The position numbers were made by a program, and so were the translations under genes. From the NCBI GenBank assembly GCA_016782645.1, contig JADHYC010000014.1:1-45496 (forward strand): DNA of 45,496 nucleotides, in the 5' to 3' direction. This document shows positions 4,313 through 8,363 of this stretch, piece after piece (position 1 is the first letter of the stretch; each line of letters begins with the position of its first letter). The stretch is from Fidelibacterota bacterium (GTDB lineage: Bacteria > Fidelibacterota > UBA2242). Below the pieces are notes generated by a model. The model did no database searches. It was not told the origin of the DNA and worked only from the letters and a program-made list of their open reading frames with translations.

Positions 4313-5107
4313 TTAACGGGAGTGAACCCAAAATAGGAATTTAGTAAGTTCGATATTATTTCTGAAAAAATACCGGGCTTTTGTGATTCTGTTTATATTC
4401 TCATCAATTATAACCGAGTATCCGTAAAGGTTAGATTTTTTAAATGCCGGCTCATCGCTAATGTCATTACCAAAGTAGATTACAAGCGGAAATGAATTGC
4501 CATCTCTTGGCAATAAATTCAGTATCTTTTCAACCGCTTTTCCTTTACCCCACATACTTTTTGGGCGAACTTCTATGAGTTGTTTGTGTTTGATAATTTC
4601 TAATTGCTCGGGTGAATCTATGTGATTTTCCACAATATTGCATATCCTTTGAATTTTAAATTCATCGTTTATCGGTAGTTTAATTTGCAATGCAAAGCCA
4701 AAGTTATGTACAATACTATCAATTGGATCATCACTAAGTTCCATAAATAAATTTTCGTATATGCTTTCTAACTTATGGCGAATCATACCCAATTTTGGAA
4801 ATCGCCATGAAAATTTTATGCCCTCGATCTCATATCCTAAGCTCCCTGCAAGTATCACCTCTGTGGTATTAAATATTTTACGTAAATTATCTAAAGTTTC
4901 AATACTAATTATGCCTACATACAAATTCTGCAGAGACGCAATCCATTGAAGATGATTAATAATATTCGAGTAGTTATTGTGAGTATGGTTCAAATCCGAT
5001 GCTATTAAAGTGTCAAAATTAAATAGGAAGCAGACTTTTCTATTTGAGGAGAGGATTTTTAATAAATTCGGGATTTCATTATTGAATGGAATTAGCGTTT
5101 GTTTCAT
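4313..5107 (-). CDS. Trehalose-phosphatase-like HAD protein with altered nucleophile motif
   Basis: 264 residues with the layout of OtsB-type trehalose-6-phosphate phosphatases. Matching motifs are GSLGYEI (88-94, OtsB GxxGAEI-like), VRPKSMWGKGKAVEKIL (180-196, with the motif III lysines) and YFGNDISDEPAF (211-222, OtsB GDDxTDEDAF-like). Motif I, normally DxDGT with the first Asp as nucleophile, reads N30-F-D32-T-L here: the nucleophile is Asn and the glycine is missing. Motif II (normally SGR) is ISIET. Known HAD chemistry needs that Asp, so the protein is probably not a normal phosphatase; a binding or regulatory role is possible. No otsA partner is nearby. It starts 36 nt after the DUF1343 gene and probably shares its transcript. 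Confidence 0.75.
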   Translation of the reverse strand: MKQTLIPFNNEIPNLLKILSSNRKVCFLFNFDTLIASDLNHTHNNYSNIINHLQWIASLQNLYVGIISIETLDNLRKIFNTTEVILAGSLGYEIEGIKFSWRFPKLGMIRHKLESIYENLFMELSDDPIDSIVHNFGFALQIKLPINDEFKIQRICNIVENHIDSPEQLEIIKHKQLIEVRPKSMWGKGKAVEKILNLLPRDGNSFPLVIYFGNDISDEPAFKKSNLYGYSVIIDENINRITKARYFFRNNIELTKFLFWVHSR

Positions 5108-5143: not shown

Positions 5144-6445
5144 TTACTTATAAATTTTGTATTGCTGTGATATCTTGTAAAACCGATGAATATCTTTTTC
5201 CCAGCTTTTAAATAGTTCATCAAGCGGTTCATTATTTTCAATTACTTTTCGTAATTTATCACTTCCATAAAGTTTGTCGATCCATGTACCGCGCCACTTA
5301 AATTCCTTTTGGTACATTTGTTTGGCTTTCTTTAATATACGGATTATTGCATTTACAGGCTTAAAATCGTTGCGGTTAGTTATTTGTATTTTAGCTCCAC
5401 CGCATTGTTTATTTTCGTATTTAGGCTTATAAGCTACATTAGGGATACTGATTGGAGTAAAAGTAGAGGGTTCGAAAATTGCTCCTTGAATGTCGAGTGA
5501 ATTCAGTTCTCTGGCAAATGTTTGACCATTAATCCAGGGAGCACCAAACTTTAGGAAAGGTGAATCTGTTCCTCTACCTTCTGAAATATTTGTACCTTCC
5601 AGTAAACAGAAGCCTGGATAGACTATTGCTGTTTTTAAATTTGTCATATTTGGAGAAGGTGAAATCCACGGTAAGTCTGTTTCATCGTACCAGAGTTCAC
5701 GCGTCCAGTTCTCCATTTTAACTATGTGTAAATCTATATTTACTGCATTTGTAATATAACCTTCACCACAAATTAATAGAGCCAATTCACCAGCAGTTAA
5801 ACCATATCGAACAGGGATCGGGTACATGCCAACGAACGATCTGTATTTTAATTCAAGCAGTGGACCTTCTATTCTGTCTCCACGAATTGGATTAGGGCGA
5901 TCTAAAACCACAAAAGGAATTCCATTTGCTGATGCACTCTCCATAGCGTTGGACATTGTTGAAATGTAGGTATAAAATCGTGCTCCTACATCTTGAATAT
6001 CATAAACTAATATATCAACGTATTTTAGCATTTCTTTTGTTGGTTTCCGATGTTTTCCATACAGGCTATATATTTTTGCACTTGTTTTTGAATTAACATC
6101 ATTTTTAATTTTTCTGCCATCAGCATGTGAACCGCGGTAACCATGCTCGGGAGCGAAAATTGCAGTCACGCTGCATTTTCCACTTTCATTAAACAAATCA
6201 ACAATATGCCGACCATTCTTATCTCTGGATGTATGGTTACAAATTATACCAATTTTTTTACCCTTGAAAAATTCAAATTTTGAAGCTATGACTATATCCA
6301 AGCCCATTTCTATAGTCATTATTGTTTTTACTTTATCATTTTGCATTTTAATAGCGGATTCTCTGCTTTTATTGCCACATTTACAAAGGAATAACAAGGT
6401 GAACAGTGAAAATAAAAAAAACAAATTTATATTAATGTTTTTCAT
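5144..6445 (-). CDS. namZ: DUF1343 family secreted protein (NamZ-like exo-beta-N-acetylmuramidase)
   Basis: The 433-residue protein belongs to DUF1343, the family of the exo-N-acetylmuramidase NamZ (B. subtilis YbbC), which removes terminal MurNAc from peptidoglycan fragments. Visible family segments are KKIGIICNHTSRD, FAPEHGYRGSHADG, DILVYDIQDVGARFYTYIS, PFVVLDRPNPIRGDRIEGP and EGTNISEGRGTDSPF. The N-terminus has a hydrophobic stretch (about 7-21) followed by LCKCGN, so it is exported and may be a lipoprotein, although this is not a clean lipobox. It is first in a two-gene minus-strand operon with the trehalose-phosphatase-like gene. Role inferred: cell-wall turnover or scavenging. Confidence 0.88.
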   Translation of the reverse strand: MKNININLFFLFSLFTLLFLCKCGNKSRESAIKMQNDKVKTIMTIEMGLDIVIASKFEFFKGKKIGIICNHTSRDKNGRHIVDLFNESGKCSVTAIFAPEHGYRGSHADGRKIKNDVNSKTSAKIYSLYGKHRKPTKEMLKYVDILVYDIQDVGARFYTYISTMSNAMESASANGIPFVVLDRPNPIRGDRIEGPLLELKYRSFVGMYPIPVRYGLTAGELALLICGEGYITNAVNIDLHIVKMENWTRELWYDETDLPWISPSPNMTNLKTAIVYPGFCLLEGTNISEGRGTDSPFLKFGAPWINGQTFARELNSLDIQGAIFEPSTFTPISIPNVAYKPKYENKQCGGAKIQITNRNDFKPVNAIIRILKKAKQMYQKEFKWRGTWIDKLYGSDKLRKVIENNEPLDELFKSWEKDIHRFYKISQQYKIYK

Positions 6446-6648: not shown

Positions 6649-6840
<192 letters not shown>

Positions 6841-6879
6841 CTAGATCTCCTATTTTTAAATTTTTCGAAAATCGGCGAA

Positions 6880-6908
6880 AATTTAATCATTCATTTACTG
6901 TAAGACAA
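6880..6908 (-). promoter_or_regulatory. Candidate promoter for the ferredoxin gene
   Basis: On the minus strand TTGTCT (6903-6908), a 17-nt spacer and TAAATT (6880-6885) precede the ferredoxin by about 40 nt. Each box matches the sigma70 consensus at 4 of 6 positions, so support is modest. The same TAAATT -10 occurs upstream of rplU. Confidence 0.35.
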
Positions 6909-7070: not shown

Positions 7071-8363
7071 ATGAAAGACAACATCGGTACACAAAAATTA
7101 GTCAAAGAACCAACACCATTGTATCGTTGGATAGTGCTAGTCTTTATTAGCCTCGCAATGTTTGGTAACTACTATGTTTATGATGCTATCAGCCCTCTTG
7201 CGGATCTGCTCAAATCTCAGCTTCATTTTTCAGATAAGAACATTGGGATGCTAAATGCTATTTACAGCATTCCAAATATAATAATGGTTTTGATTGGCGG
7301 GTTAATTATAGATCGCATAGGAACAAAAAAATCATCCTTTATTTTTTCATTTTTATGTATGGTAGGTGCGTTTGTTACAGCTTTCAGTGGTGGAAGCTTC
7401 CCGGTGATGGTAGCAGGCAGGTTAATCTTCGGACTTGGTGCTGAATCTCTAATAGTCGCTATCACTACCATACTGGCGAAGTGGTTCAAGGGCAAGGAGC
7501 TCTCTTTTGCATTTGGATTAAATCTAACTGTTGCACGATTGGGTTCATTTGCCGCTTTAAATTCGCCTACATGGGCAATGTCTTTCTATGAAACATGGAA
7601 GGCACCACTTATTATTACTACAGTAGCAGCTGTAATATCTGTTTTATCTGTTATCCTTTACATCGTAATGGAAGTAGAAGCAAAAAAGAGATATACATTA
7701 TTAGGAGCAGAAGAGAAGCAGGACAAAATTGTTTTAAAAGAGATATTTTCATTTAAACCTTCTTTCTGGTTCATCACTTTGCTCTGCGTAACTTTTTATT
7801 CAGCCATATTCCCGTTCCAGACATTTGCTATAAAATTGTTCATTGAACATCATGGACTTACGAGAGGAGCAGCTGGATTTGCTTCGAGTGTGATCACTCT
7901 GGCATCAATGATTGGAACTCCTTTATTTGGGCTTTTCATAGATTGGAAAGGTAAACGAGCGAGTTTAATGATTCTCGGTTCACTAATGATTGTTCCAGTT
8001 TATCTCTTAATGGTATACACTCCCATTCATCCTCTTATACTTATGTCCGTCATGGGACTTGCGTTCTCGCTTGTCCCTGCAGCCATGTGGCCGTCAATAG
8101 CACTGATCGTGGAAGAGAAAAAATTGGGAACGGCTTATGGTTTAATGACAATGATACAAAATATCGGATTGGCAGGATTTAATTTACTGATCGGTTGGGC
8201 AAACGATATTAGCACTACAAATGGCATAACAGATTATTCGCTGGGAATGTGGTTTTTCTCTATCACCGGCTTTGCCGGACTCTTTTTTGCCATAATGCTG
8301 AGAAGGCAAGAAACCGGACCGAATGGTCATGGTCTGGAATTAGGGAGAAAAGCAACTAATTAA
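7071..8363 (+). CDS. Major facilitator superfamily transporter, MFSD1-like
   Basis: 430-residue inner-membrane secondary transporter with about twelve hydrophobic segments and a short cytosolic N-terminus. The segment AGRLIFGLGAESLIVAITTI followed by AKWFKGKELSFAFGLNLTVARLGS closely resembles the signature region of eukaryotic MFSD1 (GRFVFGIGGESLAVAQ..., WFKGKELNLVFGLQLSMARIGS, from memory), a lysosomal dipeptide uniporter. The loop GGLIIDRIGTKKS is the usual MFS motif A region. The substrate is therefore possibly short peptides, by family only. A GTAGGT-type ribosome site lies before the ATG. It is probably transcribed alone: a hairpin and a new promoter follow it. Confidence 0.85.
   Translation: MKDNIGTQKLVKEPTPLYRWIVLVFISLAMFGNYYVYDAISPLADLLKSQLHFSDKNIGMLNAIYSIPNIIMVLIGGLIIDRIGTKKSSFIFSFLCMVGAFVTAFSGGSFPVMVAGRLIFGLGAESLIVAITTILAKWFKGKELSFAFGLNLTVARLGSFAALNSPTWAMSFYETWKAPLIITTVAAVISVLSVILYIVMEVEAKKRYTLLGAEEKQDKIVLKEIFSFKPSFWFITLLCVTFYSAIFPFQTFAIKLFIEHHGLTRGAAGFASSVITLASMIGTPLFGLFIDWKGKRASLMILGSLMIVPVYLLMVYTPIHPLILMSVMGLAFSLVPAAMWPSIALIVEEKKLGTAYGLMTMIQNIGLAGFNLLIGWANDISTTNGITDYSLGMWFFSITGFAGLFFAIMLRRQETGPNGHGLELGRKATN

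What the first reader, a model, noticed from the sequence alone, without database searches (positions are those of the whole stretch)
4313..5107. Trehalose-phosphatase-like protein lacking the HAD nucleophile
Motif I reads NFDTL instead of DxDGT: Asn30 replaces the nucleophile and Gly is missing, while motifs III and IV (K188/K190, GNDISDE) are kept. This fits a pseudophosphatase that binds a sugar phosphate but does not hydrolyse it, coupled to a cell-wall muramidase gene.
Basis: partly seen in the sequence, partly recalled or inferred. Interest (0 to 1): 0.5.

Follow-up and report, generated by a model that had tools for sequence, protein, structure and literature searches.

The report
Dead trehalose-phosphatase-like protein beside muramidase gene
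A family of uncultured bacteria keeps a protein shaped like a sugar-phosphate-cleaving enzyme whose key cutting residue is replaced in every family member found, almost always right behind a gene for dismantling cell-wall sugar, so it probably now senses or organises rather than cuts.

Summary
ORF 4313-5107(-) is a trehalose-phosphatase-fold protein (PF02358, 60 bits; AF2 pLDDT 87; best solved match M. tuberculosis OtsB2, Z 22.4). Asn30 sits where the Asp nucleophile belongs. It is no error: the gene is in 13 genomes of one bacterial family, with Asn there in 12, Ser in 1, Asp in none. It is still under purifying selection (dN/dS 0.15-0.22, 5 pairs). It follows a NamZ muramidase gene in 12 of 13 genomes. 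"Binds a sugar phosphate" is unproven. Trehalose-6-phosphate is an unlikely ligand: its specificity residues are lost, and its synthase was found in only 6 of 13 carriers. Most likely a cytosolic pseudophosphatase serving peptidoglycan-sugar salvage as regulator or adaptor. New variant of a known kind: inactive TPP domains are known in plants; I met no description of a stand-alone bacterial clade beside NamZ.

The parts
4313..5107 (-). pseudo-trehalose-phosphatase (HAD-IIB fold, 264 aa)
   Evidence: PF02358 60.3 bits over cut-off 27; TIGR00685 55.4 bits, under its cut-off 68.05; AF2 pLDDT 87.4, pTM 0.85; 5gvx Z 22.4, rmsd 3.5, 250 aligned
5018..5020 (-). Asn30 codon in the nucleophile position of motif I
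   Evidence: N in 12, S in 1 of 13 family members; D in 19 of 19 canonical rows, 18 of which were selected for DxDGT (same columns)
5012..5014 (-). Asp32 codon (general acid/base position), kept in 12 of 13, Glu in 1
4466..4468 (-). Asn214 codon in the first Asp position of motif IV
   Evidence: A6 S3 N1 D1 G1 V1 of 13; D in 19 of 19 canonical rows
4454..4456 (-). Asp218 codon, second motif IV Asp, kept 13 of 13
5144..6445 (-). NamZ exo-beta-N-acetylmuramidase gene, 36 bp upstream, same strand
   Evidence: PF07075 282 bits, PF20732 171 bits; adjacent in 12 of 13 carriers
7071..8363 (+). divergent MFS transporter, related to MFSD1
   Evidence: MFS_1 167 bits; PDB 8r8q E 1.2e-52; a homologue in this place in 10 of 13 carriers (the window, L027 and L029 at 58-59% identity, and seven others at 32-34%); L019 and L013 end at contig edges, L020 has another gene

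Best explanation
The protein is a neofunctionalised pseudophosphatase. A trehalose-phosphatase fold in an ancestor of one Neomarinimicrobiota family lost its nucleophile and metal site and was retained as a non-catalytic cytosolic protein, probably co-transcribed behind the muramidase NamZ. I think it acts as a regulator or adaptor of peptidoglycan amino-sugar salvage: its remaining phosphate pocket (Ser68, Lys/Arg188, Asp218) would bind an amino-sugar phosphate such as MurNAc-6-phosphate or GlcNAc-6-phosphate, and it would pass that state to a partner protein through its newly conserved residues. SHOWN by computation: fold prediction, residue losses, clade-wide fixation, purifying selection, gene order, presence of MurQ and AnmK in the genome. 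INFERRED: no phosphatase activity (about 0.93), co-transcription, amino-sugar-phosphate ligand, regulatory role.
For: Fold: AF2 pLDDT 87.4; the top 11 VIA rows are trehalose phosphatases or TPP-fold proteins (Z 22.4 to 15.2). Loss: nucleophile Asp 0/13, motif I Gly 0/13 and Thr 0/13, motif II Gly 0/13, first motif IV Asp 1/13. In B. malayi TPP, D213A left no detectable activity, and Asp213, Asp424 and Asp428 bind Mg (passages of PMC4081830). Kept for something else: dN/dS 0.154-0.217 in 5 pairs versus 0.184-0.275 for NamZ in the same pairs (three of the five pairs share three sequences). New fixed residues F29, E93, I94, F99, W101, P104, L106, P182, W186, K194, L198, P207, N226, I238 are each 13/13; among the 19 canonical rows W101 occurs in 12, P104 in 9 and each of the others in at most 5. 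Context: NamZ directly upstream in 12 of 13, 12-52 bp apart in 11 of those 12. In sister family f4 (G020), NamZ with a 72.7% identical divergent transporter is followed by nagB, an amino-sugar-phosphate enzyme. MurQ with AnmK beside it is in the own genome, and MurQ is over its cut-off in 14 of 15 family genomes searched.
Against: rplU or rpmA lies on the other side in 13 of 13 carriers, so the NamZ adjacency is partly inheritance of a block. G005 keeps the protein but has no NamZ beside it and no MurQ over the cut-off, so the link is not obligatory. G007 and G011 have NamZ and the transporter without it. NamZ homologues occur in 55 of 61 genomes, far beyond the 13 carriers. NagB was not found in the own genome (found in 12 of 15 family genomes), and G020, the nagB precedent, shows no MurQ. 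In the sister species (L019) a 291-bp spacer separates the two genes. In one of five pairs (L024/L025) this protein's dN/dS is higher than NamZ's. NamZ looks exported and this protein does not (by eye), so they are unlikely to touch. No ligand or partner was tested; the remaining pocket residues do not name a ligand.
Confidence: 0.36

Rival explanations
1. Pure scaffold: a dead HAD fold that binds no sugar phosphate and works only by protein-protein contacts, for example with the transporter or a kinase.
For: The canonical cap residues are lost (E130, K132, H139 columns 0/13). Many of the newly fixed residues are hydrophobic (F29, F99, W101, P104, L106, L198, I238), as an interface would be.
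Against: Ser68, Asp218 and Glu219 are 13/13 and position 188 is K or R in 13/13, which a pure scaffold need not keep; they could also be structural.
Confidence: 0.32
2. Pseudo-TPP that senses trehalose-6-phosphate, as has been suggested for inactive TPP domains of eukaryotes (recalled).
For: Descent from TPP (PF02358 in 13 of 13). A trehalose-phosphate synthase domain is present in 6 of 13 carriers, in ORFs that also hold DYDGT.
Against: No synthase (PF00982) found in 7 of 13 carriers including the own genome (MAGs, some only 70-72% complete, so absences are soft). Cap and hairpin residues invariant in 19 TPP rows are lost.
Confidence: 0.08
3. Still an enzyme, using another chemistry or substrate in the same cleft.
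For: General acid/base Asp32 (12/13), Lys/Arg188 and Asp218 remain; purifying selection.
Against: Known HAD phosphoryl transfer needs the motif I Asp (established knowledge; D213A without detectable activity in PMC4081830, passages). The first Asp of motif IV is lost in 12/13. No obvious conserved replacement nucleophile; Cys26 (12/13) lies four residues upstream in the strand.
Confidence: 0.12
4. Decaying relic, sequencing error or recent mutation of an ordinary TPP.
For: One carrier has Ser instead of Asn (L013), motif I is variable downstream, and two relatives have the locus without the gene.
Against: Intact frames in 12 other genomes at 33-94% identity, Asp in none; dN/dS about 0.2; own clade with 100/100 support.
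Confidence: 0.03

Closest known systems
Trehalose-6-phosphate phosphatase OtsB2 (PDB 5gvx, M. tuberculosis) and PF02358
   Same: Fold and cap type; VIA Z 22.4, rmsd 3.5, 250 aligned, 19% identity; family-profile match 55.5 bits.
   Different: Nucleophile, motif I Gly-Thr and motif II Gly absent; motif II Arg, first motif IV Asp and cap E/K/H/R absent or kept in at most 3 of 13.
Inactive TPP domains of plant TPS proteins
   Same: TPP domain without detected TPP activity, under purifying selection (passages of PMC3414516).
   Different: Those are fused to a synthase domain in eukaryotes; this one stands alone in a bacterium next to NamZ.
Candida albicans trehalose synthase regulatory protein C-terminal domain (PDB 5hus)
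   Same: TPP fold in a regulatory protein; VIA Z 17.8.
   Different: Part of a trehalose synthase complex (recalled); no such complex is indicated here.
OtsB1 (Rv2006) of M. tuberculosis
   Same: Bacterial TPP homologue without TPP activity (passage of PMC11046441).
   Different: 1327-aa protein (same passage). Its possible counterparts in this phylum (L113 of G033, L017 of G053) keep DYDGT; that they are counterparts rests on recall of the OtsB1 domain order.
MurNAc salvage of Tannerella forsythia (N-acetylmuramidases, MurT, MurK, MurQ)
   Same: Muramidase, MurNAc uptake and MurQ in one salvage pathway (passages of PMC10465942); NamZ and MurQ are present here.
   Different: No pseudo-TPP is mentioned in the passages seen.

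Membership tests
Trehalose-phosphatase family PF02358 (by descent) | profile score over Pfam gathering cut-off | tested here: met
   60.3 bits versus 27; 13 of 13 members match PF02358 at E <= 0.01
Trehalose-phosphatase family PF02358 (by descent) | HAD core with C2 cap fold | tested here: met
   AF2 model pLDDT 87.4; 5gvx Z 22.4
Active T6P phosphatase (TIGR00685 equivalog) | score over NCBIfam equivalog cut-off | tested here: not met
   55.4 versus 68.05 bits
Active T6P phosphatase (TIGR00685 equivalog) | motif I DxDGT with Asp nucleophile | tested here: not met
   N 12, S 1, D 0 of 13
Active T6P phosphatase (TIGR00685 equivalog) | motif IV GDDxTDE metal site | tested here: not met
   first D in 1 of 13 (L019; N in the window), T in 0 of 13; D218 and E219 in 13 of 13
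Active T6P phosphatase (TIGR00685 equivalog) | hairpin and cap residues invariant in canonical rows | tested here: not met
   H at 90: 0/13; E at 130: 0/13; K at 132: 0/13; H at 139: 0/13; R at 141: 3/13; each 19/19 in canonical rows
Active T6P phosphatase (TIGR00685 equivalog) | hydrolyses T6P | not testable with these tools
   needs assay
Pseudophosphatase (HAD) | catalytic residue loss fixed in a clade under purifying selection | tested here: met
Pseudophosphatase (HAD) | no phosphatase activity, ligand or partner binding retained | not testable with these tools
   needs assay
NamZ exo-beta-N-acetylmuramidase (neighbour) | NamZ_N and NamZ_C domains | tested here: met
   PF07075 282.1 bits, PF20732 171.2 bits

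The most novel reading that the evidence does not exclude
A trehalose-phosphatase was turned into a bacterial receptor for a cell-wall sugar phosphate (MurNAc-6-P or GlcNAc-6-P): a dead HAD enzyme that reads the output of NamZ-driven peptidoglycan salvage and controls a kinase, MurQ or the transporter.
Probability: 0.2. Interest if true: 0.65.

Novelty: new variant of a known kind. Interest (0 to 1): 0.45.

Why it matters
A literature search for pseudophosphatase with haloacid dehalogenase and nucleophile returned no paper in the held library. A bacterial clade in which the catalytic Asp is replaced by Asn (12 of 13) or Ser (1 of 13), with a new set of invariant residues and an operon-like link to a known cell-wall pathway, gives a testable case of how a sugar phosphatase becomes a non-catalytic protein. 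It also warns annotators: the gene passes the Pfam cut-off for trehalose-phosphatase, while in 7 of 13 carriers no trehalose-phosphate synthase was found, so a trehalose pathway inferred from it could be wrong.

Tried and rejected
Sequencing error or recent mutation: rejected (0 of 13 family members have Asp). Origin from the OtsAB-type fusion protein of the same family: not supported. The 12 fused TPP domains score far worse against the family profile (full-sequence E 8e-7 to 0.01) than the stand-alone TPP of G028 (7.9e-21), and the 13 form their own clade (100/100); the nearest canonical relative is unresolved because the tree is midpoint-rooted.

Weak similarity of residues 109-181 to ribosomal protein S10 (E 0.029 to 0.98 for the S10 rows; 0.093): treated as chance, since no S10 row appears in the family-profile search and the segment is the TPP cap.

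PHROGs gave nothing for this protein or the 70-aa ORF. The genome-contig scan by single sequence (close relatives only) found only L018; it has the contig length, 9,419, and the identity of L019 (G001), so I took them as one record and counted it once.

Literature: pseudophosphatase + haloacid dehalogenase + nucleophile: 0 papers; pseudoenzyme + trehalose-6-phosphate phosphatase + inactive: 0; trehalose-phosphatase + inactive + Tps3 + Tsl1 + regulatory: 1, not opened; Marinimicrobia + peptidoglycan + muramic acid: 1, unrelated by title; NamZ + trehalose + muramidase + operon, at least 3 of 4: 32 papers, of which only 8 were listed, all with NamZ count 0. No claim of absence in print is made beyond these.

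Limits: absences in MAGs are soft. G002 was first counted as lacking the gene; its contig starts inside an AhpD-like gene at the place where the locus would continue, so it cannot be scored, leaving 13 of 15 assessable family genomes. The profile search is not a census of TPPs: it did not report the fused TPP domains of six family genomes that one search found. Of the 19 canonical rows, 18 come from loci L096-L113 (18 of 18 loci kept) and were accepted only if they had DxDGT, so motif I there is by construction; the other columns are not. In the alignment rows over 400 aa were cut to their last 330 residues, which misplaced L017; that alignment was not used for counts. In one search ORFs under 110 aa without a window match were not printed. 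Start codons in relatives were chosen mechanically, so spacers are approximate. B. malayi residue numbers are mapped by motif order; that sequence was not in my alignment.

Full report
WHAT IS THERE. The ORF at 4313-5107 (minus, 264 aa) matches Pfam Trehalose_PPase with 60.3 bits (cut-off 27) but stays under the NCBIfam trehalose-phosphatase equivalog cut-off (55.4 versus 68.05). Its AlphaFold2 model from 13 aligned family members is good (pLDDT 87.4, pTM 0.85), and the best solved structures are trehalose phosphatases or TPP-fold proteins: 5gvx Z 22.4, rmsd 3.5, 250 aligned, then 6qj6, 5dxl and others down to 4ofz Z 15.2 at rank 11 (Foldseek also puts 5gvx first). Asn30 in motif I was read directly from the DNA.

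IT IS FIXED IN A CLADE. A search of 61 genomes, own included, and then of 245 genomes of the phylum with the family profile gave 20 genomes with a match in the latter. Thirteen lie in the window's own family (f1), each with one uninterrupted copy. The other seven matches (G028, G033, G049, G052, G053, G232, G235) carry DYDGT. The one named relative is a Candidatus Neomarinimicrobiota MAG. In the 13 family members the nucleophile position is N in 12 and S in 1; the second Asp is D in 12 and E in 1. Four further MAFFT settings give the same columns. The 13 form one clade with 100/100 support against 19 canonical rows, on a branch of 1.87 changes per column to the midpoint root.

HOW MUCH IS LOST. 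I compared the 13 with 18 canonical TPP domains of the same phylum plus E. coli OtsB. Positions invariant in the 19 canonical rows, and their survival in the family: nucleophile D 0/13; motif I G 0/13 and T 0/13; motif II G 0/13 and R 3/13; H at 90 0/13; cap E 0/13, K 0/13, H 0/13, R 3/13; E at 179 2/13; motif IV first D 1/13 and T 0/13. Survivors: D32 12/13, S68 13/13, K188 10/13 (R in 3), D218 13/13, E219 13/13. Motif I of the canonical rows is by construction (18 of 19 were selected for DxDGT). In the Brugia malayi enzyme Asp213 (nucleophile), Asp424 and Asp428 bind Mg, Thr253 and Lys398 presumably contact phosphate, replacing Asp213 leaves no detectable activity, and cap residues including Gln332, Lys334 and Arg337 matter for T6P turnover or binding (passages of PMC4081830). 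By motif order these correspond to Asn30, Asn214, Asp218, Ser68, Lys188 and the lost cap positions.

IT IS NOT JUNK. Pairwise dN/dS is 0.207 (window/L019), 0.169, 0.170, 0.154 and 0.217 in five pairs, against 0.232, 0.275, 0.239, 0.213 and 0.184 for NamZ in the same pairs; three of the pairs share three sequences, so they are not independent. At the same time the family has its own invariant residues (F29, E93, I94, F99, W101, P104, L106, P182, W186, K194, L198, P207, N226, I238), many hydrophobic. This is the pattern of a protein that changed job.

SURROUNDINGS. NamZ (PF07075 and PF20732) lies directly upstream on the same strand in 12 of 13 carriers; the spacer is 12-52 bp in 11 of them and 291 bp in L019. 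The exception, G005, lacks NamZ there and also lacks MurQ over the cut-off. G007 and G011 have rng, rplU, rpmA, an AhpD-like gene, NamZ and the transporter in order but no pseudo-TPP. G002 ends at a contig edge inside an AhpD-like gene. In G020 of a sister family, a 72.7% identical transporter and NamZ are arranged likewise and the next gene is nagB; in G016 and G017 NamZ is followed by a NagC/ROK-like gene (the G017 one scanned). The own genome has MurQ with AnmK next to it, so MurNAc-6-phosphate is probably a real metabolite there; NagB was not found in it but was in 12 of 15 family genomes. PF00982 synthase was found in 6 of the 13 carriers and not in the own genome.

CAUTIONS ON COUPLING. 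rplU or rpmA lies on the other side in 13 of 13 carriers, so shared descent of a block explains part of the NamZ adjacency. NamZ homologues occur in 55 of 61 genomes, so NamZ does not need this protein. NamZ appears exported (N-terminal hydrophobic segment, by eye) while this protein has no such segment, so a link would run through the pathway and not through direct contact.

MECHANISM. Most likely a cytosolic, non-catalytic TPP-fold protein serving peptidoglycan-sugar salvage as a regulator or adaptor, with a residual phosphate pocket. Steps shown: predicted fold, losses, fixation, selection, gene order. Steps inferred: no activity (about 0.93), ligand, partner. The main rival is a scaffold that binds no sugar phosphate.

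PRECEDENT. TPP domains of plant TPS proteins lack detected activity and are under purifying selection (passages of PMC3414516); M. tuberculosis OtsB1 has no TPP activity (passage of PMC11046441); the C. albicans trehalose synthase regulatory domain 5hus has the same fold. The idea of a dead TPP is therefore known; a stand-alone bacterial clade next to NamZ was not met in the searches (the last listed 8 of 32 papers).

Noticed in passing
window 7071-8363 (+): The MFS transporter beside NamZ matches MFSD1 (PDB 8r8q, E 1.2e-52, the only PDB hit at E <= 0.001), described as a lysosomal dipeptide transporter (titles and abstract starts of PMC11252000 and PMC10990142 in the listing). A bacterial MFSD1-like transporter next to a muramidase may move cell-wall dipeptides.
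   Followed up: partly
L082 4936-5688 (-) (G020, sister family): The slot after NamZ is filled by nagB, where the window family has the pseudo-TPP.
   Followed up: partly
L019 7049-7339: In the sister species about 255 extra bases with inverted ends (GTAACTGTTCACGG / CCGTGAACGGTTAC, by eye) sit between NamZ and the pseudo-TPP, like a MITE.
   Followed up: no
window 4313-5107, residues 109-181: Weak similarity of the cap to ribosomal protein S10 (E 0.029 and above), probably chance.
   Followed up: partly
window 6691-6903 (+): 70-aa ORF between NamZ and the transporter, 93% identical in L019 and weakly matched in L027; no NCBIfam or PHROGs match.
   Followed up: partly
L023 7535-7885 (+) and equivalents: AhpD-like gene between pseudo-TPP and rpmA/rplU in 6 of 13 carriers (L013, L020, L023, L025, L026, L027; by sequence, only L023 scanned) and in G007 and G011; not seen in the window genus.
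   Followed up: no
L113 2615-4204 (-): A longer ORF with a canonical TPP domain and an upstream HAD-like stretch, next to an 800-aa ORF; by recall it resembles the domain order of M. tuberculosis OtsB1.
   Followed up: no
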